From contig JASANH010000072.1 of the NCBI GenBank assembly GCA_030248295.1, positions 310,001 through 374,000 on the forward strand: DNA of 64,000 bases. The letters run 5' to 3'. Source of the stretch: Mesodorylaimus sp. YZB2_4. Lineage: Eukaryota; Nematoda; Enoplea; Dorylaimida; Dorylaimidae. The notes beneath the pieces were generated by a model, which saw nothing but the letters and a program-made list of their open reading frames with translations, searched no databases and was not told the DNA's origin. The translations under genes and the position numbers were made by a program. The first letter of the stretch is position 1. Every line of letters begins with the position of its first letter. Of this stretch, positions 12,220-59,073 are shown one piece after another.

Positions 12220-12242
12220 GTAAGACCTGAGCGGCCCCCAAA
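12220..12242 (-). other. Candidate primer-binding site of the Ty3-type element
   Basis: On the element's strand the LTR ends in CATCACA and is followed by TTTGGGGGCCGCTCAGG. The part from TGGGGGC, two bases in, starts like sites for a tRNA whose 3' end is GCCCCCA (tRNA-Pro type). Only the first seven bases fit, so the assignment is tentative. Confidence 0.35.
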
Positions 12243-12721: not shown

Positions 12722-12725
12722 GGAG
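12722..12725. repeat. Target-site duplication GGAG (right)
   Basis: Second copy of the 4-bp duplication; sequence of the TM6-TM7 exon resumes at 12726. Confidence 0.9.
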
Positions 12726-35472: not shown

Positions 35473-35488
35473 CTTTCCACCTTTCCAG

Positions 35489-37474: not shown

Positions 37475-37565
37475 ATGCAGAGACCCTTTCTTAAGAAAAA
37501 CCTGACCTTTCACGACAAGACAGCGGTGTTTCTGCTTGCAGTGGCTGTATTGGTTTTTTTCTCTG
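37475..37565 (+). CDS. Gene D exon 1: signal peptide
   Basis: 30 codons plus one base (phase 1). A basic N-terminal stretch is followed by about 15 hydrophobic residues (AVFLLAVAVLVFFS). Donor GTGAGG. Confidence 0.8.
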
Positions 37566-40500
37566 GTGAGGATTAACGAGGATTCGACGTTTAACTGACT
37601 TGCTGTACTATTATTCCTTGTGCAAAAACGTCTAGAATATTTAAAGTTTCCTGACTCAGAAACGTCAAGATGAGAAGATCAACTTCTGAGTAAAGATTTC
37701 TATTGAAAATTATATCCACACAACGAAAGCTCTTTTCGTATGTTCACAAAGTGAAGCAGTGATTTATTAGAAAGCCAGATTATGATGAAAAATTTTTTAC
37801 ACCCGCCCCCTCTTGCTGACTAAAATGCTTCCGTTGGATACAGTCGCTACGCTTTTTGCCACTTTTATCTTCCGAAGGTGCATTATTGCGGACCATTTGT
37901 TGCTCAGAGTAACATTGTGTCAGAGATGGATCCTTCGGCTACATTAAGATTAATTTCGTATGGTTTGCTGTTTACCGAACATCGTGCCGAATTACAGTAA
38001 TCGTGAAAGAGCTGGGATGAGGGATTCTTGTCACTGACAGTGTGACGCCTGCCTTTTATCCAGCTGCTAGTGGAAAAATGTGTTCTTATTTACATGCTTT
38101 CATGCCACTATTCCTCACTATGCCATTTATCGAAGGGAAATCGTCATTAACACCAACTACGTTTTTCCCGCCATCTTCCGCTTGCTCTAACGTTAGTAAC
38201 AATAAGTCACCAGTCACAAGCAAAGCCGGAAATCAGGGGCAGTGTATGTGTTTAGATTATCATCTTGTGCACTAAGCTCTGAATTGAGTGTTTCAGGCGA
38301 CATAAGCTCGTGCGCTCAGCATCGAAATGATGATATGGTCACCTATCTACACAACAATAAATGCTACGGAGTCTTCAAGGAAGAGGCTACTTGGCAGCTC
38401 AGCTATCAAAAGTGTAGCGACCTCACCGCGGCATTTTCCCCGACTATGAACTATGGCCGAGCAGCGATTTTCACCAACTTTAGCGACTACATGGAGGTTA
38501 TCACAAAAATTACAAAACTAGCTGAGGACGAAAAAGTCCCTAATGGTCACAATGCTAAAATCACAATCGATAGAACCGTCTGGTTGGGCGCCAGTTCTTC
38601 GTCAGGAGGCGACAAAATATCCGACTACTGTTGGATGAACACAGCATGCGAAAGGGGTTTTCAAGTGTCAAATCAGCAAGCGACCATAAAAGCGGAAAAG
38701 GCGAATGTGACATTATGCCTCGCAGTCTCTGACATTAAAAAAAAGCCTGCAGAGTTTGATGGCCATGAGTGCGATGACAAAAATGTTATGCTCTGCGAAT
38801 TCGGTAAGAGAAAGAATTATTATTTAGCACAGCAGCATAACAAATTGTTGGGTATGGGCATGAGCAGGGGGCGTCGTGCAAGAATATGTTAAGTCTACTT
38901 TACAAATGTGTAAAAGTTATGTCTTATCGTTAGTGCATAGTTCCAATTCAAAACTCGTTACAGCTCAATCCCAGGGTAGCGCCCCAGTCATAGTTTATCT
39001 CTCGCGAATCATTTCACGCACACAAGATGGAGTTGCCGTTTCAGGTTGCAGTCAGACTTATCCACCGGAAACATGCCCACCTCCCGATAAAGCCAGCGCG
39101 GCTCCGCCACCGGCTGAGGGTATTGGTCCGACAGCTCAGACTAAATGTCCAGGGAACGGCGTTTGTGCATTTGATCCATGTAAGAATTCTCTCTTTGAAT
39201 GATTCCCTCTACTTGCAGCCCTAGCACATTTTATGTTGCTGCTTCCTTCTCCCTTTTTGATGTAGCCCAGCGAAAAGGTATTAGTGTGTGTAGGCCAACA
39301 GACATTGGGATAGAGAGACTAGCTGGAAGCCGAGTTTGGCACCTGGAAATCTGGCTGATCCAATGGTTTTTAACTCGGATTGAGAATTCGCAGAAAGATG
39401 GAAATATCACGGTCAAAAAATTTTATCTCCGCGTGGATGTCCAGGTTACTGAGGCTCATTGCTTTCCCTGACATCAGGCCGAAATCGGTACGCAATTTCG
39501 ATATCTTGACTTTAATAACGAGCTTATCTCAGAAATTCCTAAAAGAATGGCATATAAACTGTGTTTTTAGTGATTTTCTAAGTGCCCAATGCCTGGCTTT
39601 TTTTCATAGACTTTGCAGTTTGTGGACTCAAAGATGTCAAATGGCAAGCTTATAATATTTGAAATACTGGTTCATAGCTTTGCGAGCTCCTATTGCCTTA
39701 TCTGCTGCTAACTAATGCCCCGATTCACGTTAATGCATTCGTTTTTTTCCGATACCTCTACTGTAGATATCCATGATCATCTCTATCTCTACCTGCACGC
39801 ACTTCGCTGATATTACTGTCAGTCTGGTACGGTAGGGATGCGCATTTTCTGCAGAGTAGCTTTGCGCCACATTGAAAGTTTCGGCCCGAGTAGACGGGTT
39901 TCGCTACACACAGCATACCTCACAATTGATGGTATTGGGGTGTCCAGCAGGCTCACGATCAGCTTCCTCTTTGGTCTGTGGCTGCTTAGCTGCGTAGCTA
40001 CCAACAGGAAGGCCTTTTTTAGATAATCTAGATTTTTCACTTCATTCGGAATTAAAATGACTAGCAGGGTGTTCGAATTTTTCTGAACCCCATACTAATA
40101 GTAATGCCGTTATGTTGGAATACAGAATGCATGTATGAGAATCTTCACAGGGCTACAAAAGTTCTGGCTATCGCTTATCTAAAGGCTTCCTCTCCACCAT
40201 TTGTTTGCCTCCGTTTGCGTTTTCAGTTTTGCCTTCTATCTGCTGATATTCAGCTGCCTGTATGTCTCCACCACACGCAATGAAGTATGTGCACAGGTAA
40301 CGCCACCGCAACTTGCGCTAGTGTCAAAAATCATCTGGTCACGTTTTTGTACAACGATATCTGCTATGCGATCAGTTCGAATGCAGAAGATGAATGGGAA
40401 AAAATTGTCAAGAATTGTCAAGACATGACTCATATCCCCTTCTACGGATATTCCCGGCCTGCCGTCTTCAAGAACACAAGCGATTATCTCGAGGTCATGA

Positions 40501-43500
40501 TGAGTCTAAACGAGAAGATGAACTCACCATTAGTAGATAAACTTGCAAACACTCTATTCTGGCTGGGAGCAAAGACAACTAATGGCACTGGTGGGCAGCT
40601 GTCCAATTACTGCTGGATGGTTGATAAAGAAAATCAGGGATCACAGGTTACATCGATGTCTATCTCAGTAAACACAACACTCTTGAAACAAAACGCCAAG
40701 GCCCCTTATTATCTCGTTGCGAATATCTCGCAGCCATTTAACTTTTACTCAGTCGAGAAAGGAAACGGAAAGAAATATCATACGATCTGTGAATTAGGTA
40801 GGTATTAGTTCTCCTCAGCGAGACATTCGTTATACAGTATGTACTTATTGGTTTTTCACGCCTCCTTAACTTGTTGGCTGCAGGCTGCGGGTATAAATCA
40901 ATTGATTGTCCACCCTCTCCACTCGGGGGTGCATGTGATGGCACTGCATGTCCATTTGGAATTTCTGATACTACGACCACATCGACTAGCACAACGACCC
41001 AAACCACATCTACGAGCAGCTCCACAGCAACGAGCACACCGGCAACCAACACAACAACTCAAAGCACATCAGCAACAAGTGCACGAACTGCAACAACAGC
41101 ATTAACGAAGAACACAAGCCACGCCAGCGTGACTTTGTCGACAACCTTAATGAACGCCCCGACGAGCTCCCCTGGAAGCACCACCAGCTTCATTTCAACC
41201 ACTCCCACGGTCACAACTATTTTAACAACCAGAGCGCTTCCACCTAGCACTACACAAGCTGCATCATATTCGCCCACAGCTGAAGCAAGTACATCAACTC
41301 TTCCGAGCAACAGCCCCTCTTTATCAACAATATGGATTCTGCAAACCACAATTTTGTCGCAGTCATCATCCTCCACGATCTCAACCACAACTCCAGTCAC
41401 TACCGGTGAAGAGACAACAGCCACAAGCGCGCCGTCAACAGATTCAACGACTGCCCAGTCAGCTTCTGAAAGCTCACATATTCCCACGAGATCACCACCT
41501 ACAGAGCTGCCAACTACTCAGGCACTGCCAACAGCCAGCACAGCACTTTCTAGTACCACCAGCGCAACGATCTCTTCTGTTCCCGCGGCAACTACGTCAG
41601 AAGAGGTAACTCAAGGGCCTTCATCACAACCGACACAGACAACCAGTGGTACTTCCACTCCCCTGCCGACTTCATTCTTGATGAACCTTTACACTAGCGC
41701 AACGTCTAAGGCGTCTTCGTCCACATCGATGACGAGGAGTACAAGTATAGGCACACTCGCAAAGCAGACAACGATCAGTCAATCCTCTACTACGTATGAG
41801 GCCACGACCCAATCATCTACCCATACACCGACTCTCCTGACGACAATCTCAATCCTCTCAACTAGCTCAGCATCTGCAATGTTTTCGCCCACAGCAATGA
41901 AGACGAGCGCCAGTACAGACACGCCCACAAAGCAGACCACGATAAGCTGGTCATCGACTTTAACTGTTCTCACATCCCCTTCGTCTTCTATAGGAGTCCC
42001 ACCTTCCTCCGGCAGTTCGACCACAGTTCCGACGGAACAGTCAATGGGGGAGGTAGAAACGTCGACTCCGTCTTTCCAATATTCTCCCGCAACTTCAACC
42101 ACCACCACGCTGACTTCTGGGGAGATAAGAACCTTCACGAGTCTTGTGACTACAGCCGCTTCAAACATCATGCCATCGAAATCGACAGAAACAGAAACAG
42201 CTGCTGGTCGTACACCTTTGTCCACATCAAAAGAAAGCAGTGTCCCAGTCGGTCTGGGCACAACATTTAAATATTTGTCCACTCCAGCTGTCGATACATC
42301 GGCTTCCAGCCTGTTCACTTTCTCCTTTCTGCCCACAACAGAAATTAACAATGGTAACAAAACAACGAGCGCATCGCTGGGGGTGACCAAGCAAATCAGC
42401 ACAGTAAACAGCACATCCTTCTCACTCTCCCCCACTGCTACAGCGTCAATAACAAGTGCACCAGAGATCTCCACTGCGCAAGAATCACAACTGTTGAAAA
42501 CAACTGTCACATCAGCAATGGCAGCTTTGACATTGTTGCCCGCAGATACTTCTTCCTCTTCTATTTCCTTTTATAAGCAAGATGTGGGCGGAACCATAGG
42601 CGGAAAAGTAAACGGAACCACAACCCCTACTGGTCCACCCCCAGAAACGACCACATTTGAGGACTCAGCGTCAAGCTTTGTCTTAAAGCAGCCTACCACA
42701 AAGCTTCCATCTCTGGTAGGAACAAATAACATCATTCAAGATCGCCCTGTGACGAAGGAAGCTGCACAGACCATTGCAACACTGACAGCAAGCGAATACA
42801 CTGGTGAAATTTCGACTACAGCGGCGCAGCTACTCGATTCGTCGGACTTCCAGAACTCCAAGACCAGCCCTATAGACCATAGTGAACGCACGACAGTTCA
42901 TGAGTCAATCTTATGGACGAGTCCACCTGGCATCACGGAAAGTGCGCCACAATCACCAGTCAGAGCTGACACAGATGAGACCACACTCATACCCTTCTAT
43001 TATGAGGTAGTGCGAATGCGACCAGCAGCATCTCCCATTTTGACGAGCAGAAGCACAGTCCAAGCAGCCAAGCACACGAGGACGAGTTTGATTGACAGTA
43101 TTTCTGGCCAGCAGCCGAGCACACTCGACAGTTTCTTGGATTCGAAAACCATCTTAACTTCAAATCAATCGTACAAATTCACCTTAGCTGACCCCATATC
43201 CCAGATAGCATCATGGAACATGCATGAAACCACTTTTTTAAGCAAATTGCTGCAAGGAACGTCGAATGTAATTAACACATTCCCCGCAATTCTAGAGCAA
43301 TGGAGACTCAATGACACAGCGACCATGGTCAACGATACGCGTAACTGTCTACTTGTGTCTACATCTCTTTTTTAGCTATTCCTTATCTCATACATATTTT
43401 TAACGACTATCAGCTCAACTTTTCAGAGTTTTGCAACAGCATTGCCTGGGAGCCGTTTAGCGCATGCACAGCAGAGTGCGGGTATTCGGTGAAAATTCGC

Positions 43501-46039
43501 CAAAGAATACGGACTGGTTTGATTGATCCTGATGTTTTTTGCCCCAACGAAACTGTCGTCTGTGATGTGCAGCCATGCGTGAGTGGAAATGAGCCACCCA
43601 TGATTTAGCGTTTTAAATGCTTGCAGATTTTCTAGAACCCAATGACAGACGTCGAAATTATTGCCAGCGATGTCATGATGAACATCGGATGCATATGGAT
43701 TCTGGTCAGCCTCGCGTTAGCCATTGTCGTTTTCTTTGTTCTCAGGTAAATTAAGAGGCTCGTGTCAGGTTTTTACACACAGCTGTACGAGCCAGGTACA
43801 GTATTTGGGCATGAGCACGTGGGCCAATGTGGATTGTAGGCTAGTTATTCCTGTCACACACAGAGGGTTTGACATAAAAACGTCTGATCTAAACTTGCTA
43901 TCCGACAACAAGCAAGAATAGCTTGGTTGCTCGATAGTTCGCATTTTCTTTTGTTTTGAATACATGAGCACTAACGGTTTTTGTGCTTTTTGCGCATGGA
44001 TTCTAGTGTATCTAGTCTAGTCTTTCTAGTACCTATATATGTTTTTGCGCGTTCATTTTCGCACGGGACAACGAGCGGAAGGGCTAACGTGCTATAAGAC
44101 TGCTGCAGCGACACACGCGAGAAATTTAAAACTGCAAGCTGCCGAAACTGTGACTTGGTTTATTGGATGGTGCTGTCTCAAAACTCTGCAGCAACATTGT
44201 ATTGGCTCCTTCACTTACCAGCGCCGCATCAAAATTCAGCTGACCTCATAATCAAACCAGCATCATAGAACCCAGAGCCCCGACTTTCCTGGCTGTACTC
44301 GCACTGTGGCCCGTGCTTGATGCCTGGTAAGGTCCCCCTCGTACCCAATACCAACCAAAAACTCGAATTTGGCAAATTGAAGCTTAAAAAACTTTTTTCG
44401 AAAAGCTCTGTTCGATACCGAACCAAGGCTTTCTCACTATTTGAAAATATGAGTATGTCCAACTGGCCCTGAAGCAAAAAGTGTACATCAACAGCAACTT
44501 ATCACTCAAATCATTGTAAAACTCGATACGACTGCTTTCAGTGCCATACCCGTACCGCTGTACCAGGGGGTTTTACAGTACGGCTGGTACGGTGGTGCGG
44601 TCGACCCTGGCACAGACCATGCACGAATCCACATTTTTAGCCAAGTGCTGCAAAAGAGCAAATTCACTTTTTCTGATTTACATAGGAACTCTTTTCGCGC
44701 TGGATTATTTCACAGATCTCCTACAAGAAAAAATTTAAATTTCCCGCCGCAAAGCCGCTCATGACAGTTTTACATAGATGAATAGTTTATCACTCCAACA
44801 CTTGCGCGCGCCCCGTTCTTAAAAGATTTTTTTAACAAAATGGAAACAACTTCTGTACACTTTTTGAATAGAAAACCGATTTCAGTAAAGCTATGAATCA
44901 GGAAAACTGTCAACCAAAAATTTCTGTCATTACTACTAGCACGCAGGTTTTAAAGTGAGGGACTTTTTGACTATGTAAAATTGTCATAAGCGGCTTGAAG
45001 CAGGAACTTTGAAATATTCGATGTACGAAGCCTGTGAAATGCATAGCATGTATCTTCAGAGATCGGTCTTATTTACAAGTTATCCATGTCAGCGAGGATA
45101 TCAGCCTGTTTATAGCACATTTGTTCGTCTTATTTCTGTCAATGAGGAACGATCGCCGTTACAGCCATGTAAGCATTTCGTCAACAATTTTTTAACGATT
45201 AGTGTTTTTATCTCTTAGAAATATGTTTAGGTGGTGTGCAAACTGGCAGCTCTCGGCTTGCAATACTTCTTCTCAGTGACATTCATATTGCAAAGCTTGG
45301 AGGCCCTGCACATCTTCGCTGTGCTCACCGATGTGGTCGTGGGAGAGCAGGCTTTATTGAGTGCAAAGAAAACCATGGTGATTGCGTGGGGTGCGCATTA
45401 GCTAGGCTGGTGATTGTTTTTGTTCAGTAATCTTCTAATCGCTCATTTTAGGCGTTCCTGCAGTGATAACGGGCGTGACTGGCGCAGTTGCCTTTGATAG
45501 ACTTATATCCAGTTATTCGTAAGACTTTCATCCTCGTGCCATCAAAAATGATGACAATACATTTTGTCTAGATGCTGGATTAATATGGGAGATAGTGTCC
45601 TCCTAGCCAATTTCGTGTCTGTTGTTTTTGTGGCTTGGCCGACTGTAATTCTTTTGGAAGCCACTGGACACGGGAAAACGAATAGGAAAGCACCCGTCGT
45701 TACATCATGCAGGTACAGAACTTTTTTTAAGTGTTTAACTTTCTATGTAGGCTTTAGATTTTACAATTTCAGAGTTGCGCATGGTGGACTTTGCGCTTTA
45801 TTCGGGGTCCAGTTCGCATGTTGGGTTGTGTCCGCCACAGCTATTTACCACCAACGAATTTATATATACGCCACAGTTTTTGGTCTCAATGCCGCGTTGG
45901 GTGTATTCATTCACATGTATCACGTTTTTTCGAATAGAAAGGTACCCATTTGCTGCTGATATCAATCGTTTTCAAAACTACCTCGGTTTTTTAGGCCCGG
46001 ATCGTCATAGGAAAAGCGTTCCGTTGGTTTCGAGGCTGA
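37475..46039 (+). CDS. Gene D: CTLD-mucin-TSP1-7TM receptor (complete)
   Basis: Thirteen exons: 37475-37565, 38297-38803, 39045-39179, 40297-40797, 40884-43340, 43427-43578, 43636-43745, 45060-45168, 45231-45390, 45452-45518, 45572-45712, 45773-45941 and 45995-46039. The sum is 4,644 nt, exactly 1,548 codons including TGA. Exon 1 codes a signal peptide or signal anchor (MQRPFLKKNLTFHDKTAVFLL and a further hydrophobic run). Order: CTLD I, Cys linker, CTLD II, mucin, TSP1, 7TM, 14-residue tail (ARIVIGKAFRWFRG). All exons are open and spliced with GT-AG. The start is supported by an in-frame stop (TAA 37445-37447) upstream. Predicted cell-surface receptor of the same subfamily as gene A. Its native promoter has been displaced by the LTR element. 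Confidence 0.88.
38297..38803 (+). CDS. Gene D exon: CTLD type I
   Basis: 168 codons, phase 1-1: NNKCYGVF, TWQLSYQKC, YGRAAIF, VWLGASS, ISDYCWM, MLCEFG. Nearly colinear with the exon at 16400. Confidence 0.82.
39045..39179 (+). CDS. Gene D exon: Cys-containing linker
   Basis: 44 codons, phase 1-1: GCSQTYPPETCPPP at the start and KCPGNGVCAFDP at the end. Same length as the gene B linker. Confidence 0.78.
40297..40797 (+). CDS. Gene D exon: CTLD type II
   Basis: 166 codons, phase 1-1: YNDICYAI, YSRPAVF, FWLGAKT, LSNYCWM and a terminal TICELG. Confidence 0.82.
40884..43340 (+). CDS. Gene D exon: mucin-like region
   Basis: 818 codons, phase 1-1. Cys head GCGYKSIDCPP and ACDGTACPFGIS, then Ser/Thr-rich to the end. 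The donor is CGC|GTAACT; the frame stays open to a TAG at 43373-43375 if not spliced. No GAIN or GPS is seen. Confidence 0.83.
43427..43578 (+). CDS. Gene D exon: TSP1 module
   Basis: 152 bp. FCNSIAWEPFSACTAECG, then KIRQRIRTG and CPNETVVCDVQPC. Six Cys, with WEPF in place of the WxxW of genes B and E; the same variant as the fragment in gene A. Confidence 0.87.
43636..46039 (+). CDS. Gene D exons: 7TM domain and tail
   Basis: TM1 43636-43745 (MMNIGCIWILVSLALAIV); TM2 45060-45168 (LQVIHVSEDISLFIAHLF); TM3 45231-45390 (CKLAALGLQYFF); TM4 45452-45518; TM5 45572-45712 (CWINMGD); TM6-TM7 45773-45941 (GLNAALGVFIHMYHVFSNRK); tail 45995-46039. Exon lengths equal those of gene A base for base. Confidence 0.9.
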
Positions 46040-46274
46040 CTATACTAGCTGTCAGCTCGAAGGAAATTATGGATGCACACTGTAGAAAATTTAGGGGGAC
46101 TGAAAACCCGGGACGTTTGATGTGAAACTGTTAATGCACGACGGAGGGGGAAGGTGGATGTGAACGCTTAGTTGCACCCACATTTTGTCTGCTCTCTGGA
46201 GCATTGCTGTGCTTCTGTGTTGCTTATCCTTTTCCAAATCTTTTCATCTTAAAAAAAACAGCTGTCGTATTATA

Positions 46275-46280
46275 AATAAA
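46275..46280 (+). promoter_or_regulatory. Possible polyadenylation signal of gene D
   Basis: AATAAA, 236 bp after the stop codon; the first good match downstream. Confidence 0.4.
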
Positions 46281-48318
46281 AAGTCATCAGCATGCATAAA
46301 ATATAACTTTTGGAATTTTCTCGAACGCTCAGCGTTGGATATGACGGAAAACAGTATTGCTGCACCCTTTTGATTCGCAATACCTGGAGAGCTAAAATTC
46401 AAAAGCAGTATGCTCTTCATCATTTATTTTTAAGCAGGGAGAGCCCGAAAAATTTTTGCTACAAATTTTGCTGATAGCAGCCGCGATTCACCCATCGTTT
46501 GGATAGATCGGTTCGGGCAAAGAGCGAAGCTTTTTTAAAGCGAATACTTCCTGTATGGTCCGCCGAAGTGGGCGTTTTTTTTTTAGGGGATATAGGCGAA
46601 ATGAATGAGAAGTGTGTAGGGGGTTACGGAGTCAAAACAACGCAGTTTTTGATGCACGTCCTTTGATATAAATGGTCAAACATGAAGCGTTGTCGGCATC
46701 AAAATTTATTGCCTTCTATTCATATACAGTACGTTATTTCGCACTTATCCGCGTGAAATACTCGATATCGAGATATTGATCAAAAGCGTCATCTAAAGTG
46801 TGGACCCTGTAGAATATGGGTGCGCAAATTAAAGCAGCGGGAGAGGGGAGCTCTAATATGGTCTATTGGATCAAATTCTTTTGTAAAATCATGACATTGC
46901 AGGTAAGACTTTGGAAAATCGAATTAGCTCGAATCGAATCGTTAGCTGAATTAGACCACCTGACAATCAGCAATCTGGATCCTAGCAAGGCCTTGATGGT
47001 TGCTAAGTGACTTGACAATGGCAAGTTCGCGCCCACGCAGGGTTTCCGAAGCGATTAAAATAATGTACCTCTGAAAACTTCAATTCAGGAAGGCCGTAAC
47101 TGATTGTGAGTATGTGCTTATGTTAATTGCGTAAAACATACAGTATACGTGGGAGTAATCTGACTGAGTCTCTGGCTTACTGTTATTTGTAATATTCGTT
47201 GTGGCAAAGAGGACGAACAAACAAGTTTCCTCTAAATGCACATGGATGTGGATAAAGGACATTCTCGGCCTTATAGGAAATTTGATCTAATCGGGTGCCT
47301 AGTCAGACTGAGGCTACAAATGGGAAAAAAGTCGCTAGAACCGCAGAGGGTCATATTTAGTTTGCATTCAGACCCATCACACGCAGCAGGGCTGGAAGTA
47401 ATAGTTGTATCTTGATGTAATAGTGAAGTTGTTATCGTAATATAACGTTATGTCAAGTGAGATCTAGTTTGCATATCACGATATAGGTCGACAGGCATAT
47501 TTATAGCGTTTCTGATTCGAAGTTTGCGAGAACAGAAGAAATGGGTATAAGCCATAAAAAAATATATTTGGAAACCATTCAAAGACTTTGATTACGTCGA
47601 AAAAGTATACTGCCGCATTTTTGATCACTCACAAGACCTGTTTGAAAGCAAAGTCTAACACAAGATTGAAGAGCAGCCAGAGCACTGTACTGTACTATTC
47701 ACTCCTTACGTAACCGCTCCAGCGCACTAAGATCGTGGGACACACAGGAAATATAGCATAAGCAGCTCAGTCAAAGGCACAAGCAAAGTTCAAAACAAAA
47801 ATTATTTCTGTGCATACAGCCAGCAGTACATATCATTCTTTGGACGAGCAGACACACAGTATTTCCGACTAGCTAACAGTATTCATAAGCAGAAGACTTG
47901 TGTCAGTTTCCATAATCTTCTGCATCTTTCCAGACTCCATCTAATCGAGTTCGAATTGATCCTTTTCTCAGCAGTAAAGCCTAATGAATGTGAGCAACAG
48001 CAACAAAAAAGATTAGGTGTATGGATTAATAATTTGTCACAAAAGCATACTCTGTTGCTTGGCGCAACGGCCAGTCAACCACTCTTTCATGGTATTGGAA
48101 TGAAATACTTGTTCTAATGGATTTCGTATTGAATTTTCCGACACGGAGATTCTTGATAAAGTTTGTGACCCAGAGAGGATTTTAGCCATTTTTGTGTGTG
48201 CAGTAGACGAACTGTACGAGGGCTGTGGGAGGGGTTCACGTGTGACCGATCCGACGGAAGTGGCTTACAGATCGATGGGCTGATTCTGTCATCCAGCATG
48301 ATACATGTTCAGGGCAAC
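46281..48318. other. Spacer between genes D and E
   Basis: No coding exon or recognisable repeat family. There is a short A-run near 46255 and a T-run at 46575. The 64-codon frame at 46816-47010 has no family features. Confidence 0.5.
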
Positions 48319-48379
48319 ATGATCAGATTTCTTGTGGTTGGCGTAGTAATATTTTCGAGCAGTAACTCTGGCGAAGCTT
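48319..48379 (+). CDS. Gene E exon 1: signal peptide
   Basis: 20 codons plus one base, donor GTAAGTG. A hydrophobic core (FLVVGVVIF) precedes small residues. It is the only ATG in the region that joins in phase (1) to the first CTLD exon. Confidence 0.75.
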
Positions 48380-51300
48380 GTAAGTGTTGTTTAAAATAGA
48401 GCACTTTCATCACAACAAGGACAATTACAGAATGACCATAAAACTTGTGTCCCCATTCACTTGTCACAGTCATATCCTATGAAACCCAATAGCTCTCACT
48501 TTTGCTGGGTGGTAAATAAATATGTAATGTTGGGAGATATATTTGAAGCACCCATTCTCCGATTTTTCTGCAATAATTTTGTTCTTTGACTTTCAATCGC
48601 ATGTAACAAAAATGCGTTCTATCAGGCCTGTTTGGCGGCGACATATGAGCGCCGGGGTCTGTACGCGAACATACTCGCCGAACCCGCTCAGACCAATGCC
48701 CATCGCTCACTTATATCCTTTTGTCGGGTCCCTTTCAACTCCAGTGCACCCAGAGTAACAAGTGAGGATTGACGGTACTGTACGTGCGATATCGGGCACT
48801 ATCAAATGTGATCAGATATAAATCCCACGTTTGCGACGGCTTCATGAGTTGGGCAACAATTGTCTATCGTTTTAATGATTATGAGCTTGTTTAACGGTGA
48901 TAATTTGTCATCTATGAGGATAGCTCGACGGCGGAGTCAGTTAGGTCTCATTCGATAATTGAGGAAACGAGCTTTGGAAACCTTGTGCGGGTAATGCCCA
49001 AGCTGAGCTTACGATCTTTCGGACCGACCAATCGCTGATACTAATCGATTTTGTCATCGATTGAACTCAAACTGATCCACTTTCGAACGATATCCCGCTA
49101 TCTTACTAGTCGGAAGATTCTTAGGCAGTCCTTAATTTAATCAATCGTTCGACGGCGTCAGATGCAGAGGCAAATTAAAGAGCTCAACAACCTCAACCAT
49201 GATAGTGAGACGGCTGGGCACACCTGGAATCGGCGGGGAGAGCGACTGATTTTCGCTAAATCTGATCTGATCGTGAGTGCCAGAGAGGCAGAACACGAGG
49301 AAGTGATCTACGCGTTGGAAATACTCAAGTCAAATAAGGAACACTGACACACTGGGTGGGGTTGCACAGAAATTTTTCAGTGGATTGCACTTTGTTTGTC
49401 CATTTATGTCCAGGGGCAATCCAGGGGTAGGAGAAAACTTAAGGTTAGTATCGATGGGGATATAGGATACGATAAGAAGATTAACTTGCTTTGAGAGGGT
49501 CATACTCAATTTAGCATAGGACAAAGCAAGAAATTCTAGTTTCCCCGCTAATACTTTGCTAGTGATTGACCAGGGCTGTCGCTTTTCACTTGCATGTACA
49601 GCAGTCACATTCGCAATTCGGAACCGTGTCTACCCCTCAGAGATTTGCCGCCCTTGTGACCAACAGCAGGTAATCTCTCAGAAAAGCCCGAGAAAAAAAT
49701 TTGATTGCACTATTTGATCATTACATATCTTGGCTGTTGCAGGTAACCTATCTACAGTATGCACTGGGACCGCCGAAAGAGTCACCTACCTGTACAACAA
49801 CGTCTGCTACATGATTCAGTTGGACAAGGTTGGCACGTGGGCTAACGCAGCCTCTAGCTGCCCCCAATTCACTCTAGGTTACTCTCGTCCAGCAAATTTC
49901 GAAAACACGAGCAGTTATCTAAAGGTCATTGAAAATCTACAATCAAAGATGAGTGGGACCGGCCTTGCTGGCAGTCCCGTTTGGTTAGGAGCCCTAGCAT
50001 CGACTGGTGGCGGTCAACTGTCAGATTACTGCTGGATACTCGGCGCGGCAACCAGTGGGTCCCAGGTCACTTCGGAGTCGATTTTAGTCAATACAACTCT
50101 CTTAAATCCTGGATTGTCGGCTAATGCACTTGCTACAAGTCTCTTTCAACCATTTCATTTTTACTCTGTTAGAAACGACGATACAGGTATCGGAAAAGAA
50201 TTTCCTATGATCTGTGAACTGGGTAAGCATGTATTACAGAAAAAGAGCTTTCGACTGAAAGGTTGTCTCTTGACCATAGGCTGCGGTTTTTCATTGAACA
50301 AATGCCCTGAATCGTTAAATGAAGCGTGCGATGGGACCACATGCCTGTTCGGAACTCAAAGTACCACATCGACTAGTGGAAGAACATCAAGCACGACGAG
50401 TTCGCTGACTACAGTAACATCCAAGATCAACGCGACTGCTGCAAATTCGACTGTCTCATCGACCCATATGACTTCACCCCAATGTGAGTACTCCCTTGAA
50501 ATAAGCGATGTGGAACTCGGGGAATGAGAAGCAGTTTTCTTCCTGTTCACGGTAATGTTCGACCGAACCGTCGACCTCGACCTCAAGGAAAAACCAAGAG
50601 TCTGCTGCTTTTTCATGCCCACCGATGCTGATATAAGTATTTTCAGATAATGGGTCAGCACAACCAACCACAGACCTCGCATGCGGAACATCTGATAGCT
50701 GCCTGCCGCCTGGAGGTCTCAATAAAAGCACATCGTGCCCAGGCGCAGGCGCAGGCAAAGATGGATTGCTTTCATGTAAGTATTTCTTGCTCTTTCAATG
50801 CTCACTCATGCAGCTAATTCCTAGGTAACGTAAACTCATGCGCGAAGTACGAGAAAAATGATATGGCCACCTATTTATACAAAAACAAATGTTACGGATT
50901 GTTCAACGGAAAGGCTTCGTGGCAAGACAGTTACACACGATGCGACAACCTAACCAAGGCATTCTCGCCATACATGAACTACGGCCGAGCAGCTGTCTTC
51001 ACTAACATCAGCGACTACATTGAGGTTATGAGTAAAATACTGATCTTAATTAATAAGGAAGTAGTGCAGAATGGCCATCCAGCATCATTCTCTGTCAGAG
51101 GTCAAATCTGGTTGGGTGCCGAGTCGACTTCAGGTGGCCGAATGTTGTCCGACTACTGCTGGAAGAGTACATCATGCGAAACAGGCTCGCAAATATCAGC
51201 TCAGCCAGCAACTATTCAAGTCAACAAACCTGCGACAAGCTCCATGCCTTCCTGCTTGGCAGCCAATGGCATAAAAAAACCAACAGTGCTTGAAGGAAAA

Positions 51301-54300
51301 GATTGCAGTGGAAACTTCTTCATGCTTTGCGAATTTGGTAAGGAAAAGCTGGCTAAAATAATTTTTCGATATATCACCGCATGATAATTACCCCTTGCGG
51401 TAGAAAGCAGGGAAAATATTGTGGTGGAGAAAAACAGAATATAAAATTTTCTAGGGAAATGTATAAGGCATGTCTTCTGAAATTTTGGTGCCAAGCAAAA
51501 GATCTTGTGGAATATGAACAAGAAATTTGAATTCATCGAGGTCGATAAAACGTTATTGACTGCTTTCCGCTCGAAGCTGACACCCCCCTCCCCCCACCCT
51601 CCGGCATGGGTCGACCTGGACGCTCTAAAAGTAATGTTTATAGAGCGTCCAGGTCAACCTGTGCTGCCCCACATCCACACCACATTGGGTCGCGTAATAC
51701 ACAAACGTGCATGTAGGAGACATCTTCCCGTTGCATCGTGTAGCTTTTTTCTTTTGGCACGCTGTGGATAGCGGACAATGCCTTTCCAGGTTGCGATTTG
51801 TACTCTCCACCAGCAACATGCCCACATTCGGATCAAACAACCACACTCGCTGTGCCAGCCTCAGCATCAGCACTTCAAACAAAATGCCCAGTACCAGGCG
51901 TATGCGCATTTGATTTATGTAAGTAAACACTAGCGTTAGCCCACCTCCACGTCCTAAGTAAGGACTAATCTCACCACATTGTGAGCTCCATCTTGAAAAA
52001 GGGGGGCTGCTGAAATCTTGTGGACGAAACCGGGTTGAAGAGTAATTAATCCCATTACGTCGAGAGTGCTCCTCCACGCTTGGGCTTTGCAAGAACTTTC
52101 TAAGGTTATTTAGGAAAAAACACACATCTTACCTCTAAAAATGTTTATTTTCGAAGCGCTTCCTTTATGCAAAAACTTTTTGGGAATTCACTTTTTTTAA
52201 AATGGTTGATATGCATTGGTATGGTAAGTGTATGCGTCATTTTCGGATAACTAGCCCGTGAATCGTGTACAAACAAGTCGTGTTTTATTTTTGGTCGGAA
52301 CCAAAACTCCTTTCGCGAAAGGTCTCTTCTAAAAAGTTAAAAGTTCTACATGCGCTGAAATCTGACGTGAATATGTACACTAGATATGAAGTTACATTAT
52401 GTGTGCACATATTCTGTTTTTGCTTCATGTTTTATGCCACACATGTAGCTGAGCAGTTTAGTGGAGAGCAAAAGCGAAAGGTTGAACAGTGTGGTGGAGA
52501 TTTTCTTTCTTCAGAACTTGTTGTCCGCCTGGCCCTTGGCTTTTGAGCTTGGAAAACGCACACACACGCAGGCAGTAGGTACATTTGTTTACTTGTACAG
52601 GCGATGCAAAGACGTCGTGTGTTGAAGACGTGAATACCATCAGCTACTTGTACAATAATGTCTGCTATCTCATTCGTCTGGACAGAATAGAAAATTGGAA
52701 AAATGCAGCTGGACATTGCCCGCTGCTTGATCATGGATACTCTCGTCTAGCTGTTTTTGAAAGCACGGAAGACTATCTCAACGTCATCACGAATCTAAAA
52801 CAAAAATTGGATGGAACCAACTTGGCTGGCAGTCTAGTCTGGTTAGGAGCACAGACAACTAATGGGTCTGGCGGGCAGCTATCTGATTACTGTTGGATGG
52901 CTGACTCAGGAACGGTTGGATCTCAGGTTACCATGGAGTCAATGTCAGTTAATACGACTGTATTGAAAATTGGTAACGTTGCATCAGAAAGAAATCCGTT
53001 TTCACTCGCCGCTGATCCATCAGACCCATTCAGGTTTTACTCCGTCGAAGAGGGTAGTAGAGATGCGGAAAAGAAATTTCCGATGATATGTGAATTAGGT
53101 GAGTGCTCTGTCTTTCCGATTGTTAAACATGACCATGGCAACTGGTAACTTTTGTCTGCAGGCTGCGGTTATGCATCGATTGACTGTCCGAGCACGTCAC
53201 CTTCAGGCGCATGCGATGGGACAGCATGTTTGTTTGGCATTACAGAAACCACCCTACCCACCGTGGCGATACAAAGCAGGGTTACAATGCCAATTATCAC
53301 ACCAACAATAAGCACAGGGAAAACAACCAGTAAATCCATAGAAACTTCGTCCTTTAGCCTTATCCCAACTTCCATGACCGAATCTGTGCAATCAACCTCG
53401 ACTCCGCCTCAGTATCTAACCTTGTCGACAACACCTATTAGTCCTTCGAGTACATTCTCTGCGTCAAAGTCAGAACCTTCGACCTCTACAGCCGCTATGG
53501 CCCTATCAACGGAAGGTTCTTCTACCTCAACCAAAAGCTTCATTGTCAACACTACCACAGTAACCACGTCTACGAATTTAACATCTCTTCCAAAAACTAG
53601 TTCGATTTCATTCATTACGCCGCATTTACACACTACTTCAGCCTCACCCCTCATAAGTTCGCCTAATACTCCCAGCAGCAAAATTTTATCCTTTTCCACA
53701 GCCAAAGCCTCAACCATCGCCTCTCAAAGCTCCGCCACCACTAACTCGGCTTTCTACGTTCAGGAATCCACTACCTCATCTAAAGCGCTCACCACTAGAT
53801 CTGTCACGTATCCTCCTACAACATCAGCAGTTACAACCCTCTCCAGCAGCAGCTCCTTGTTGCCCTCGATAACGCCTCTGCACACAACTTTGATCGAGCC
53901 ATCATCCTCCGCCACTCTAGCAACTTTATCCACGACTTCAGACACCGCGAGTACAGCTGTTACAAAGACAGAAACCACCAAATCAAGCACTTCAATAAGC
54001 TCTTTATCGACAAAACTAACGACTGCACAGGTTGCAAAAATGTCAAGCGCAGTTCTCTCTAGTACCATTAGCCCAATGACCTCCTCAGCTACTGGAACAT
54101 CAAAACAAGCAACGACAAATCGAAAGACAACGACTGCAACCCTGATTTCAACAGCGCCACTGATGACCCAATCAGCTCCTGAAACCACAAGATCATCATC
54201 GACAGCATTGATAACTACAAAGGCACTGAAATCAGCAAGTACAACCATCTTTAGTACTACTAGCGAAACGATCTCTTCTGCTCCCCTAACAACTACGTCA

Positions 54301-57300
54301 AAACGAGAGACTCAAACGCCTTCGTCACAGCCGCTAGAACTATCTAGCAGTGCATCGACTTCTCTGCCGACCCCTCCTTTGACAACAGCACCAGCAATCA
54401 CCATTAGCTTAACCTCTGCGACGTCCTTGCCCGCAGCAATGACGTCGAACGCAAAGCAGACTACAGTGAGTCAGTCTTCGACTACAGAGAAGGTCACAAC
54501 AGGCGCAGAAATCGTTCCGTCAACAAGTTCGCCTACTGAATTGCTGGCAGAACAATCGGTTGAAGCAAAAATCTCAGAGATAGAAGCCACAACTTCACCG
54601 TTCATACATTCGCCCCCAACATCGAACCTCGTTAGAGTGACTCCTGCTCTTCTGACCTCGACTGCATTGCAGACATTGTCAGCACTCACGACTGGAACAA
54701 CCTCCGCTGCGTTTTTGTCCACAAGTCCAAACCTATCCATGAATTTCACAACTGCAGTAGCAGCATCAACGCCATCCAAACAACCTGCCGGAGCAACCAC
54801 AAGAGGATCAACTGGAAGTGAGAGTCTGGTGACTACATTTGCTTCACAAGCCACCACATCGAAACGTGGGGTCTTAAGAATTCGGACTCCTTCACCGCCG
54901 CCGCAACTCGCAGACACAAGCAGCAATACTTTTGTGCATCTTTTGCAAACTAGTATCATGACGACTTCTCACTTTTTTAAAACAACAATGGCGAGCATAA
55001 GTACTGACACAACCACAGAAATGCCAACATCAATGTCAACCAAAGGGGCCGACAGTACCACGCAAGCTGATACGGAAGGATTAACCACAAAAACGAGCAC
55101 TGCTTATCCAAAAACGACCACATCAAAACGTGCAGTGAGGAGAATTCGAACTCCTTCTCTCTTGCCACTAACAACGAGCAGTACCACACATCTTGTCTCG
55201 ATTCCAATCATATCGACTTCTTCCATCGTAGAAACGACGTCTGCCCCGAGTGCTGAAGAACCCGCTGCAAGATCCTTATCCACTTCAGCCAAGTCGGCGA
55301 CACAGCTCCCGCCACAAGATGAGATCCTTGCCCAATCATCTTCTCACAAAATCTTACCCTCAACAACCGCATCGAATAAACTATTTATGCAAGACCCCAT
55401 GAAAACGACAGTCTCAGAGACAGAAACACTTCTGCAGCCCATTTATTCCTACAAAACATCAGATTTCAACAGACTGACTTCTACAGAGGCAGAAACCTCC
55501 ACGAGAGCGGTACCTACACTAGAGCCAATGTCACTATTATTATCAGCTTCAGAAACGAGCCTGTCGTTGTCAAGAGGAAGCACCAAAACTACAAGGGGCA
55601 ACTACATAACATATTCAACACCTAACAGAACCAGATCAGCCCCTCACACCAGGAGAGCATCTGCTGATACGGAGACTTCTAAATTTGATTTTCCGTCCTT
55701 GCCTACAACAAAACTGAATCAAGGTCCCCGCAGCACACGACAAAGTTCGCACAGACAATCTGGTATGCTCGAGCTCACGGCTGATCCACTCACCCTAACA
55801 TCACATTCAGCAACAAGCTGCAGCACTTCTTCAACTTCCAAAGATTCAACATTGGAAGATATTCCCCCTGCGAAAACTAGATCTTCATCTGTAAGCCCTT
55901 CTACCACAACTTATGCGAGGTCTTTAAAGACTCAAGGAATTCTCAGCACAACCGCCACCTTAGCTGCCTCATCTCTGTCCACTCCTACCCCAGTATACAC
56001 CAGAAGAACACATGCTTTCATGCTTGATACCACAACTCATGCTACATTTACCGCTAACGAGCAGACATTAACCAGCAGTTATTGGAAAGCCTTAAAGAAA
56101 AGAACAGCCAATGTGCCCATAGCCAACCCGACTTTTCCCACACTTGCAGCAGGATTATCTGATGAGACAAATCCCAAACAAAACGCAAACCAGCTGGTCA
56201 CGACTGACTTAACCTTAGTCAGTGAAACAGGAGGCAATCTAGCAAAATACGCTACTTTTATTGATGACATACTCTCCATCAATTCCAGCCCAATTGACAC
56301 GCCATTCCAGGCAATATCGGAAAGTACAGTTGCTCATGAGAGCTATCGTGAGGATGGGGTCGCAGGTCCAGAGGCAAAGGAGCGCATAGGCACTGATCCC
56401 ATGCCTCAAAAAGCAGCCTCGATAATTGGAGAAATGTCAAATTCAGTCACACAAGTAAAACCCATCAGCCTGCAGCCTGTCACCAGAGTCCAGCCCCCTG
56501 CAGAGACAACCGTTTACGTCCAAAAGTCCCCTGCCACTCAGCGAGCTGCAGTGACAAGGGCTAATGTCAATGAGGTTCCGAAAACAGAGGCAGAGTTTCG
56601 CACATTGTCAGACCTCGAATACCATTCAAACAACCAGAAAGATGACAGCGAAAGCACAATTAATCAGAGTCGATCGTTGTCAACGGAGCCTGATAACACT
56701 TCCGGCCAACAGGGCCCCTTGAATGCTCCAGACATTACTGGACGAGGCCAGCAGGGCCCCTTGAATGATCCCGACATTACTGGACGGCCCTTCTCTGTAG
56801 ACGTCGAAGCAAGATTTGAAATTACTGCTGATCGTGAGTCTAAAAAGACTACGAGCGATGAACCCGCACCTATCTCAAAAGAAAGCAGTTTACTGACGGA
56901 AAGCGCCATGAACACGCTTAAAAGATCTCCACCGTCGCAGTTGACCACGCCATTTTCAACCAAAGCATCCTCTAATGCACAGATTTCTAGTGCAACGCTA
57001 AACAAAGAAGGAGTGTCCTTGAATTCTTTGAGTATATTGCTTACAAACAGTCAGAACCTTACTGACAGACCGACCGTTTGGCCCAATCACGAGCTATTAA
57101 CAGCAGCTTCAAGGGCTCCTAGCGTCAAGAACCCGACGCTGGCGCCCCAAGGTGACAAAACGACGACACCAGGTACAGTATGACTTCTTTCTACAATACA
57201 GGTCTCTTATCGATACCTACTCTAACATGCCTAGACGTTTGCTTGTCATTGGAATGGGATGCATGGACCCAATGTAGTGTCACGTGCGGATCATCTATCA

Positions 57301-59073
57301 GAATAAGAAGCCGAAATCGACTGCCCACGGAGAATGCAACAGTTGAAGACTGTCCAGCTGAATCACAAAAAGAGACCTGCGATATTCCGCCATGCGTAAG
57401 AACCTCTGATTTTACGTGATCATAAACGGGATAATTATCTTTTATAGACCCCGATGACTGACATCGAGCAGGAAGCCACCCAAGTGATGATGAATGTGGG
57501 CTGTGTCTGGATTATCTTCGGTCTAGCCTGCTCTATTCTCGGATTCATCATCTTTAGGTAAGTTCCTTTGCTGAGGGCTAACACAGCAGAGCGTTACCAC
57601 GCCTGCTGAATTCATGTGCTTCAGGTCGACCTACTATCTGCAAGTCGTGCACGTCAACGAAGATATCAGCCTGCTGATCGCCCATGTGCTCGTCCTCTTT
57701 TTCGCCATGAGAGACGACTCCAAGTTCAGCCAAGTATGCAAGTCCAAACGGTAGAATCTATTCTTGAATGCGCTGCTTCTTTCCAGACTGTCTGCAAAAT
57801 GGCCTCGCTGGGTCTGCAGTACTTCTTCACAGTCTGTTACACGTTCAAAGCATTGGAGGCGCTGCACATTTTCACTGTTTTGACCAATGTGGTGATGGGG
57901 AACGGTGTCCTTTTCAACCTGAAAACGGCTATGGCATTGGGATGGGGTAAGGCAAATAAGGTTCAGTGTGTTGTCAAAAGTTCATGCTATTTGCTGCAGG
58001 TGTTCCGGCAGTACTGACGGCCATCACGGGAGTCACAATGTTCGACAGCCTGATGTCGGATTATTCGTAAGGGGTTTGCTGATGCCATTTCTGCCTCCAC
58101 AGGATTCAAATTGGACGCATTTAGGTGTTGGATCAACATCGGCAACACGTCGGCCATGTTTCTGTCAGCATTGCCCATATTCTCTTGCGCCTGGAGTGTT
58201 GCCATCCTTCTCGAAGCGACTGGCCATTGGAACGAGTACAGTAAATCGAATGTAATAAATTCCTGCAAGTAGGCACTTGGAGTTTTACTTTTCTCAGCTT
58301 CGAGGAGAAAAAAGATTGTTGTAGGCTAGCCCGTGCTGGATTGTTGTCTGTCCTCTCGGCGCAGTTTGTTTCGTGGCTTATGACTTTTTTGGGAATATAT
58401 TACCAACACGTTGCTTATTTCGCAATTATATTCGGTATCAACGCAGCTCTCGGCGTATTCATCTTTATGTATCACTTTCTCGCCAATCAGAAGGTGAGCT
58501 TAAGTTTATAGGGCACGGGCTTTTCTCGAATTTTGGCTTCGCGGACTCTAGCAGACATTTGGCGGTGCGAAATGGATGGCGATTGACCTGTTCAAGTAAG
58601 CGTGTGAGCGCCTAGCATGACGTCATGCGAGGCCCGTGACGAAATATAATAAAAAAATTCCCGAATAATTTATTAATACATTGAATTCATTCATTCAATG
58701 GACAACAAGAATAAAATTTAAGCAGATGAGTTCACCTTAATTCAAATTCATTTTTTGAACAGCTTTTCACTTTATTTTATTTCAATTCATTTCGTCGCCA
58801 GCCTCGCATCACGTCATTATACTAGGCGCGCACACGCTGACTTGGATAGGTCAATCGCCATCCATTTCGCAACGCCAAATGTCTGCAAGAGCCCGCGAAG
58901 CCGAAATGAGAGAAAAGCCGTGCCCTAATCTTTGTCGTTAACCTTATTCCTCACTCAGATGAATGCATACCCTGAACAGAACTGTGTCCATCAATTTATC
59001 GACTTTTTAGGTTAGACAACTTATTTTAAAGACATACCACTTTTGTTTCCCGAAGAAGGAAGCTGCGACTTGA
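48319..59073 (+). CDS. Gene E: three-CTLD mucin-TSP1-7TM receptor (complete)
   Basis: Sixteen exons: 48319-48379, 49743-50222, 50280-50483, 50647-50775, 50825-51337, 51790-51918, 52601-53098, 53162-57172, 57235-57395, 57448-57557, 57625-57733, 57787-57946, 58000-58066, 58125-58268, 58325-58493 and 59011-59073. The sum is 7,008 nt, exactly 2,336 codons with TGA. Exon 1 codes a signal peptide (MIRFLVVGVVIFSSSNSGEA). Order: CTLD II, short mucin, Cys exon, CTLD I, Cys linker, CTLD II, 1,336-codon mucin region, TSP1, 7TM, 20-residue tail (VRQLILKTYHFC then basic residues). All exons are open. The CTLD order differs from genes B and D. Predicted glycosylated surface receptor; ligand and signalling partner are not deducible. 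Confidence 0.9.
49743..50222 (+). CDS. Gene E exon: CTLD type II (first)
   Basis: 159 codons, phase 1-1: YNNVCYMIQL, TWANAASSC, GYSRPANF, VWLGALA, LSDYCWI and MICELG. Closely related to the exon at 52601. Confidence 0.83.
50280..50483 (+). CDS. Gene E exon: Cys head plus short mucin
   Basis: 67 codons, phase 1-1: GCGFSLNKCPES, ACDGTTCLFG, then a short Ser/Thr run. Counterpart of 18549-19088 in gene B but without the 15-aa repeats. Confidence 0.72.
50647..50775 (+). CDS. Gene E exon: small Cys exon
   Basis: 42 codons, phase 1-1, with LACGTSDSCLPPGG and TSCPGAGAG. It has no counterpart in genes B or D. The phases fit and it has good splice sites (TTTTCAG, GTAAGT), but it is called on position and frame alone. 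Confidence 0.6.
50825..51337 (+). CDS. Gene E exon: CTLD type I
   Basis: 170 codons, phase 1-1: KNKCYGLF, SWQDSYTRC, YGRAAVF, IWLGAES, LSDYCWK and MLCEFG. Confidence 0.83.
51613..51655. repeat. 14-bp perfect inverted repeat in an intron
   Basis: GACCTGGACGCTCT (51613-51626) is reverse-complemented at 51642-51655 with a 15-nt loop. It lies in the intron between the CTLD I and linker exons of gene E. Confidence 0.7.
51790..51918 (+). CDS. Gene E exon: Cys-containing linker
   Basis: 42 codons, phase 1-1: GCDLYSPPATCPHS at the start, TKCPVPGVCAFDL at the end. Counterpart of the linkers in B and D. Confidence 0.78.
52601..53098 (+). CDS. Gene E exon: CTLD type II (second)
   Basis: 165 codons, phase 1-1: YNNVCYLIRL, NWKNAAGHC, GYSRLAVF, VWLGAQT, LSDYCWM, MICELG. 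Confidence 0.84.
53162..57172 (+). CDS. Gene E exon: giant mucin-like region
   Basis: 4,011 bp (1,336 codons, phase 1-1). Cys head GCGYASIDCPS and ACDGTACLFGIT, then Ser/Thr-rich. Two short basic islands (KRGVLRIRTPSPPP, KRAVRRIRTPS) recall KKGRRITPLLPPP in gene B. A 14-residue unit GQQGPLN[A/D]PDITGR occurs twice near 56703-56790. The end is TTTPG before GTACAG. Confidence 0.85.
57235..57395 (+). CDS. Gene E exon: TSP1 module
   Basis: 161 bp: EWDAWTQCSVTCG, RIRSRNRLP, six Cys ending CDIPPC. It is followed only by TPMTDIEQEATQVMMN before TM1, so no GAIN domain can fit. Confidence 0.9.
57448..59073 (+). CDS. Gene E exons: 7TM domain and tail
   Basis: TM1 57448-57557 (GCVWIIFGLACSILGFIIF); TM2 57625-57733 (VHVNEDISLLIAHVLVLFF); TM3 57787-57946 (CKMASLGLQYFF, LEALHIFTVL); TM4 58000-58066 (GVPAVLTAITG); TM5 58125-58268 (CWINIGN); TM6-TM7 58325-58493 (GINAALGVFIFMYHFLANQK); tail 59011-59073. 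It matches the adhesion-GPCR pattern throughout. Confidence 0.9.
58511..58925. mobile_element. TA-flanked foldback (MITE-like) element
   Basis: 415 bp in the last intron of gene E. Terminal inverted repeats of about 135-138 bp (58511-58648 and 58788-58925) are about 85-90% complementary and begin GGGCACGG. Both ends are flanked by TA (58509-58510 and 58926-58927), the target of Tc1/mariner-type transposases. An AT-rich 140-bp centre has no coding capacity. Confidence 0.82.

What the first reader, a model, noticed from the sequence alone, without database searches (positions are those of the whole stretch)
37475..59073. A tandem family of lectin-mucin-TSP1 receptors with an adhesion-GPCR 7TM but no GAIN/GPS
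Seen: genes B, D and E each code CTLD-like domains, a huge Ser/Thr-rich stalk, one TSP1 module and a 7TM with family-B motifs (TM3 Cys, CW before TM5, F-I-F-x-Y-H...N-Q-K-V-R at the end of TM7). Only about 11 residues lie between the TSP1 and TM1. Known: adhesion GPCRs normally carry a GAIN domain with a GPS Cys/Trp/HL-T/S motif just before TM1, supplying the tethered agonist. Inference: a lineage-specific receptor class that signals without autoproteolysis, with a mucin stalk and lectin head replacing the GAIN unit.
Basis: partly seen in the sequence, partly recalled or inferred. Interest (0 to 1): 0.88.

Follow-up and report, generated by a model that had tools for sequence, protein, structure and literature searches.

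The report
Nematode lectin-mucin-TSP1 receptors lacking GAIN
This nematode genome carries a large family of cell-surface receptors that look like adhesion receptors in the membrane but lack the self-cutting, self-activating module such receptors normally have, so they are a natural test of whether that module is needed for signalling.

Summary
Genes B, D and E share one layout: CTLD-like exons, an 818-1497-residue Ser/Thr stalk, one TSP1 exon, then a class-B 7TM in six exons with matching splice phases. At 15 of 15 family loci where both exons were held, the TSP1 exon stops at its last Cys codon, an intron follows (at most 72 nt in 13), and the TM1 exon opens with a short linker, [NT]P[ML][TS] in 14: no room for a GAIN domain. 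GPS and GAIN searches find none on this contig, while six other loci pair GPS with 7tm_2. dN/dS of 0.10-0.21 shows constraint. Pfam misses the heads; an AlphaFold model matches CTLDs, without sugar-binding motifs. The genome looks nematode. Listed rows hold 39 TM3-exon places (6 doubtful) and 13 single-exon places; five of the 13 were read and have EGF-like modules before TM1, again no GAIN. C. elegans has three adhesion GPCRs; ADGRA1 is called the only aGPCR lacking GAIN. No transcripts; signalling without a tethered agonist is inferred. New variant of a known kind.

The parts
37475..37565 (+). gene D signal-peptide exon (MQRPFLKKNLTFHDKTAVFLLAVAVLVFFS)
   Evidence: best hydrophobic ATG exon with a phase-1 GT donor in the scan
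38297..38803 (+). gene D CTLD exon 1
   Evidence: phase 1-1 exon; row of the alignment used for the fold model
39045..39179 (+). gene D Cys-rich linker exon
40297..40797 (+). gene D CTLD exon 2
40884..43340 (+). gene D mucin-like stalk exon, 818 aa, S+T 42%
43427..43578 (+). gene D TSP1 exon
   Evidence: TSP_1 21.0 bits, cut-off 21.6
43636..43745 (+). gene D TM1 exon, opens NPMT; intron to TSP1 57 nt
45060..45941 (+). gene D TM2-TM7 exons (45060-45168, 45231-45390, 45452-45518, 45572-45712, 45773-45941)
   Evidence: no tail exon found for D
48319..48379 (+). gene E candidate signal-peptide exon (MIRFLVVGVVIFSSSNSGEA)
   Evidence: less certain than D
49743..53098 (+). gene E CTLD exons 49743-50222, 50825-51337, 52601-53098 with Cys or Ser/Thr linker exons between
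   Evidence: the folded sequence is 50827-51336
53162..57172 (+). gene E mucin-like stalk exon, 1336 aa, S+T 37%
57235..57395 (+). gene E TSP1 exon
   Evidence: TSP_1 E 1.9e-9
57448..57557 (+). gene E TM1 exon, opens TPMT; intron to TSP1 52 nt
57625..58493 (+). gene E TM2-TM7 exons
59011..59073 (+). gene E cytoplasmic tail exon VRQLILKTYHFCFPKKEAAT-stop
   Evidence: same-frame matches at E<=0.01 to ORFs behind 4 of the 10 other loci compared (L023, L024, L026, L028)
16400..19629 (+). gene B CTLD and linker exons
   Evidence: no signal exon found
19694..24187 (+). gene B mucin-like stalk exon, 1497 aa, S+T 37%
25865..27255 (+). gene B TSP1 and TM1-TM7 exons (the TM1 exon is followed by a GC donor)
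28532..28585 (+). gene B tail exon VRALAKKTYRRCISRKE-stop
1..1419 (+). 3' part of gene A0; its TSP1 exon spans the window's left edge
4447..12889 (+). gene A1, decayed copy: stop codons in the TM1 and TM5 exons and a retrotransposon-like stretch inside

Best explanation
An expanded nematode family of adhesion-class (class B) 7TM receptors with no GAIN/GPS module and no recognisable tethered agonist. A TSP1 module is joined directly to TM1 by a short conserved linker; CTLD heads sit far out on a long, probably O-glycosylated stalk. Shown: the layout, the absence of GAIN/GPS, constraint on the TSP1-7TM unit, and its recurrence in many paralogues. Inferred: the CTLD heads bind surface or environmental ligands; binding or pull is passed through the stalk and TSP1 to a 7TM that keeps adhesion-receptor features (ECL2 Cys-Trp, TM6 Trp, FI..YH...N end of TM7) and couples to G proteins by basal activity tuned by the ectodomain, without self-cleavage.
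For: Identical phases at every TSP1-to-TM7 junction in B, D and E; 15 of 15 loci with both exons show the same TSP1|GT...AG|TM1 junction; GPS, 8 matches genome-wide, and GAIN, 1 match, none on contig C83; 4 of 4 GPS loci read in the same genome carry CNHLTxF and a hydrophobic strand; dN/dS 0.10-0.21 over TSP1-7TM in the 7 pairs chosen of 55 possible; best PDB match ADGRD1 over TM1-TM7, E = 8.1e-12; CTLD fold; 60 of 64 CTLD-exon matches on contigs that also bear 7TM-family matches. [quoted passage not shown]
Against: No transcripts. No proof of G-protein coupling. D's TSP1 falls just under Pfam's cut-off. The TM1-TM2 intron of B needs a GC donor. The conserved [NT]P[ML][TS] linker could itself be an agonist. 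In BAI3, HBD and GAIN are required for NFAT signalling (a section heading of PMC13322242), so loss is not without cost there. No signal exon was found for B and no tail exon for D, A0 or A1.
Confidence: 0.68

Rival explanations
1. A GAIN-free tethered agonist: the conserved linker after the last TSP1 Cys acts as an uncleaved built-in agonist released when TSP1 tilts under load.
For: The linker opens [NT]P[ML][TS] in 14 of 15 loci, including those whose TSP1 differs strongly.
Against: It lacks the TxFAVLM-like pattern seen in this genome's own canonical receptors.
Confidence: 0.15
2. A non-signalling adhesion or scavenger protein in which the 7TM is only an anchor.
For: Very short tail in B and E; huge adhesive ectodomain.
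Against: 7TM dN/dS of 0.09-0.20 in the 7 pairs tested, and class-B features kept in the 11 loci aligned.
Confidence: 0.12
3. Separate genes: a secreted or anchored CTLD-mucin-TSP1 protein next to a 7TM gene.
For: No RNA evidence for the joins.
Against: Same phase-0 GT-AG intron at 15 of 15 loci, 52-72 nt in 13 of them; if the TSP1 exon is not spliced, a stop follows after 7 residues in E and 9 in D.
Confidence: 0.03
4. A canonical adhesion GPCR whose GAIN exon was missed.
For: Gene B has a 1677-nt intron before TSP1; two family loci have 232-233-nt TSP1-TM1 introns, long enough for a GPS-sized exon.
Against: D and E have 86- and 62-nt introns before TSP1; 13 of 15 TSP1-TM1 introns are at most 72 nt; no GPS or GAIN match on C83 or C39.
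Confidence: 0.02

Closest known systems
Canonical adhesion GPCRs (class B2), e.g. ADGRD1, ADGRL3, CD97
   Same: 7TM sequence; modular long N-terminus
   Different: no GAIN, no GPS, no tethered agonist found; TSP1 abuts TM1. [quoted passage not shown]
BAI/ADGRB receptors
   Same: TSP1 modules in an adhesion-class receptor (PMC13322242, passage)
   Different: BAI3 has HBD and GAIN between its TSP1s and TM1; an engineered HBD+GAIN deletion of BAI3 resembles the natural layout here
ADGRA1/GPR123
   Same: stated to be the only aGPCR lacking GAIN (PMC12922695, passages)
   Different: one receptor; its short N-terminus is recalled, not checked; here a huge ectodomain and many paralogues
Bursaphelenchus xylophilus protein Bu_11124
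   Same: nematode, two CTLDs plus a latrophilin-like 7TM (PMC9085898, passage)
   Different: keeps a GPS; the word thrombospondin does not occur in that paper's main text
Amphioxus and sponge adhesion receptors
   Same: amphioxus: C-type lectin domains in N-termini (PMC2246102, passages); sponge: 12 of 40 without GPS (PMC4302439, passages)
   Different: the sponge cases may be incomplete models, as its authors say; no TSP1 fused to TM1 is described in the passages seen

Membership tests
Adhesion GPCR (class B2) | class-B/adhesion 7TM | tested here: met
   Pfam 7tm_2 3.7e-15 to 8.9e-14; ADGRD1 8.1e-12. The single-exon EGF type stays below the 7tm_2 cut-off
Adhesion GPCR (class B2) | GAIN domain with GPS before TM1 | tested here: not met
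Adhesion GPCR (class B2) | tethered agonist TxFAVLM-like strand | tested here: not met
   linkers of 15 loci, by eye; no H[LMIV][TS]xF in B, D or E
Adhesion GPCR (class B2) | long modular N-terminus | tested here: met
Adhesion GPCR (class B2) | G-protein signalling | not testable with these tools
   needs cell assays
C-type-lectin-like domain | CTLD fold | tested here: met
   one exon modelled from 10 aligned: pLDDT 85.3; Foldseek best 1.5e-6
C-type-lectin-like domain | Pfam Lectin_C profile | tested here: not met
   no hit in 4 exons scanned of 8
C-type lectin (sugar binding) | EPN/QPD and WND motifs (recalled as markers) | tested here: not met
   none in 8 of 8 CTLD exons of B, D, E
TSP1 repeat | six Cys, W-x-x-W/F start, Pfam TSP_1 | tested here: met
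   B and E above cut-off, D 21.0 vs 21.6 bits; six Cys in each
Mucin-like stalk | long Ser/Thr-rich segment | tested here: met
   S+T 37-42% over 818-1497 aa; glycosylation itself not testable

The most novel reading that the evidence does not exclude
A GAIN-free branch of adhesion-class receptors has expanded in a nematode into a recognition-receptor superfamily: variable CTLD heads on stalks, with one of two interchangeable small modules (TSP1 or EGF) set directly on the 7TM, signalling by a mechanism that needs neither autoproteolysis nor a Stachel peptide, perhaps as an environmental or immune sensor set beside the usual nematode chemoreceptors.
Probability: 0.4. Interest if true: 0.8.

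Novelty: new variant of a known kind. Interest (0 to 1): 0.62.

Why it matters
GAIN plus tethered agonist is the textbook account of how adhesion GPCRs work, and a 2026 report argues that one of them, BAI3, does not need either for several functions (PMC13322242, abstract). A family that lacks both in nature, stays under selection and has dozens of copies makes the question testable without engineered deletions. It also widens the picture of nematodes, where C. elegans has three adhesion GPCRs (PMC13197933, passage).

Tried and rejected
Missed GAIN/GPS exon: rejected by intron sizes and genome-wide searches. Pseudogene family: rejected by dN/dS, except A1, which is decayed. Pfam detection of the CTLDs: failed; replaced by fold prediction. 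Relatives in the protein collection: full-length E searched on its TSP1-7TM region gave 0 at E<=0.001 of 952 candidates; the TSP1-7TM alignment A4 gave 0 of 7997 scored; the EGF-7TM alignment gave 2 of 5327: P0001 at 41% identity, and a lobster protein aligned over 14% of the query, whose listed Pfam domains include EGF families. Length and word limits make these absences weak (even known adhesion GPCRs did not come up), and nematode-specific databases were not available. Structure of the EGF-7TM set: pLDDT 51, poor; its Foldseek matches (CD97, ADGRL3 and other class-B receptors among the 50 listed) are only suggestive. Species identity: only nematode, not further. Paper searches for GAIN-less, CTLD-bearing or expanded adhesion receptors; no title or abstract start listed described this layout. 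Of 9 papers I saw passages (one of them, PMC13322242, also abstract, section list and part 1 of the discussion); the Ciona paper PMC2396169 (passages) added nothing used here.

Full report
Setting. The window is part of contig C83 (310001-374000) of a 145-Mb, 1067-contig genome. Col_cuticle_N gives 133 matches, Srsx chemoreceptors 150 and Str only 7 (lower bounds, and Srsx may also catch other rhodopsin-type receptors), and COX1 fits invertebrate code 5 by eye. That these Pfam families mark nematodes is recalled; on that basis the genome is a nematode's. The species is unknown.

Gene structure. From three-frame readings I built models of B, D and E with no internal stop. D runs from a signal exon through two CTLD exons, a Cys linker exon, an 818-aa Ser/Thr stalk, TSP1 and 7TM. 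B and E have three CTLD exons and stalks of 1497 and 1336 aa. These models reach the end of TM7. A further exon, VR...FPKK-like, lies downstream of B and E; of 11 downstream stretches compared, 8 are linked by such matches at E<=0.01 and D, A0 and A1 are not. The E tail ends at 59073. Splice phases from TSP1 to TM7 (1-0, 0-2, 2-0, 0-1, 1-2, 2-2, 2-0) are the same in all three. One donor, after TM1 of B, is GC, not GT.

The junction. Profiles of the B, D and E exons were run over 16 loci. The locus C83_411k was cut before its TSP1 and TM1 exons. In the other 15 of 15, one of them the decayed A1, the TSP1 exon ends on its last Cys codon followed by GT, and TM1 starts after AG; in one, C56, the AG lies 6 nt before the profile start. 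Intron sizes are 52-72 nt in 13 of 15 and 232-233 nt in 2 of 15. The linker is [NT]P[ML][TS] in 14 of 15; C56 reads NVMS by eye. Introns before TSP1 are 62 nt in E, 86 in D and 1677 in B. The last 350 residues before TSP1 have no Cys, no H[LMI][TS] and no CxC in any of the three genes.

Controls for absence. GPS gives 8 matches in the genome and GAIN 1, none on C83. Comparing, six of the 8 GPS matches lie close to a 7tm_2 match on the same strand (C58, C72, C130, C249, C16, C2). Of four GPS loci that I read, all carry CNHLTxF followed by a hydrophobic strand. So the genome does contain canonical receptors and the GPS search sees them; GAIN was seen at only one of them, so the GAIN search is the less sensitive.

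Class of the 7TM. Pfam 7tm_2 is found in all three. The best PDB match is ADGRD1 over TM1-TM7, 8.1e-12; GLP1R reaches only 2.8e-5 over a shorter stretch. The alignment of 11 loci keeps the TM3 Cys, ECL2 CW, TM6 W and the FI..YH...N end of TM7 in all 11; that these are class-B landmarks is recalled.

Selection. In the 7 pairs that I chose of 55 possible, dN is 0.03-0.15 and dS 0.26-1.21 over TSP1-7TM, ratios 0.10-0.21; TSP1 alone gives 0.06-0.27. Seven CTLD pairs of 28 give dN 0.30-0.40 and dS 0.78-1.91, ratios 0.19-0.38, so the heads seem to change faster but are still constrained; high dS values are uncertain and not every CTLD pair need be equivalent.

Heads. Pfam finds no lectin domain in the 4 CTLD exons scanned of 8, only sub-threshold hits to unrelated families. 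The AlphaFold model from 10 aligned exons has mean pLDDT 85.3, and Foldseek gives NKp80, Mincle, LOX-1 and other CTLDs. EPN/QPD and WND are absent in 8 of 8. In the genome 64 CTLD-exon matches were found, 44 on C83 and C39 and 60 on contigs that also bear 7TM-family matches (counted by hand).

Family size. One search gives 166 matches, not all listed. In the rows listed, counted by hand, 39 places match the TM3 exon of intron-bearing copies; six of these, at 33-38% identity and not checked (C2, C22, C3, C441, C206, C589:19791), may be other class-B receptors. Another 13 are single-exon 7TMs at 22-27% identity, some perhaps assembly duplicates (C130 and C885 are near-identical). Five of the 13 were read: C24, C130 (two places), C253 and C885. 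They have one or two EGF-like modules just before TM1 and no GPS; Pfam EGF families support this for the three scanned, one above an EGF cut-off. One of the five also shows the end of a CTLD-like domain and a Pro-rich stalk (by eye). P0001, from another source, has the same order in 588 aa with a CTLD-like start by eye; Pfam gives only sub-threshold EGF there and no 7tm_2. 7tm_2 is below cut-off or absent for the EGF type, so its class-B status rests on similarity to E and on a low-confidence model.

Mechanism. Shown: anatomy, absence of GAIN/GPS, constraint, expansion. Inferred: ligand capture by CTLDs, reach given by the stalk, TSP1 as rigid cap on TM1, and signalling without cleavage. The nearest experiment is BAI3, whose tethered agonist mutations and HBD+GAIN deletion left axon and dendrite control intact, with a partial synaptic effect of the deletion (PMC13322242, abstract and part 1 of the discussion); a section heading says HBD and GAIN are required for NFAT signalling.

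Known and new. Adhesion receptors with C-type lectin heads are known in amphioxus (PMC2246102) and in Bursaphelenchus xylophilus with a GPS (PMC9085898). Receptors predicted to lack GPS are known in a sponge, 12 of 40, where the authors allow for incomplete models (PMC4302439). Choanoflagellate ones nearly all keep GAIN (PMC12716839). A review calls ADGRA1 the only aGPCR lacking GAIN (PMC12922695). [quoted passage not shown] I read passages only of these. What seems new, in the searches named in Tried and rejected, is a large, multi-copy, selected family with a big ectodomain in which TSP1 is fused straight to TM1.

Verdict. The defining GAIN/GPS feature was tested and not met, so I do not file these as adhesion GPCRs proper: they are adhesion-class 7TM receptors without GAIN, a new variant of a known kind.

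Noticed in passing
window 6070-11985 (-): Retrotransposon frames, Gypsy-like by eye (gag-like 11497-11985, pol-like 6070-11496), lying inside the decayed receptor copy A1 between its TM5 and TM6-7 exons.
   Followed up: partly
window 32633-36475 (+): A second retroelement-like stretch by eye, gag-like and aspartic-protease-like frames, between receptor genes B and D.
   Followed up: no
window 61386-62231 (-): A frame that by eye looks like a von Willebrand factor A domain protein with a signal-like start, just beyond gene E.
   Followed up: no
L030, L035, L038-L040: Single-exon 7TM genes with EGF-like modules directly before TM1 and no GAIN; three near-identical copies lie about 0.8 kb from contig starts (C130, C253, C885).
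   Followed up: partly
L012 (C18): A GPS-bearing receptor-like gene with, by eye, a TSP1-like segment and Ser/Thr stretch before the GPS: a possible intermediate in layout.
   Followed up: no
G000 genome: Str chemoreceptor matches are few (7) while Srsx matches number 150, an unusual balance compared with what I recall for C. elegans.
   Followed up: no
L036 (C73) and other contigs: Fifteen COX1-like stretches, 14 of them partial and 7 with TAA or TAG codons, suggesting nuclear copies of mitochondrial DNA; COX1 itself looks very divergent.
   Followed up: no
window 53162-57172: The gene E stalk holds two near-identical basic motifs (SKRGVLRIRTPS and SKRAVRRIRTPS) that resemble furin-type cleavage sites and could allow shedding of the head.
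   Followed up: no
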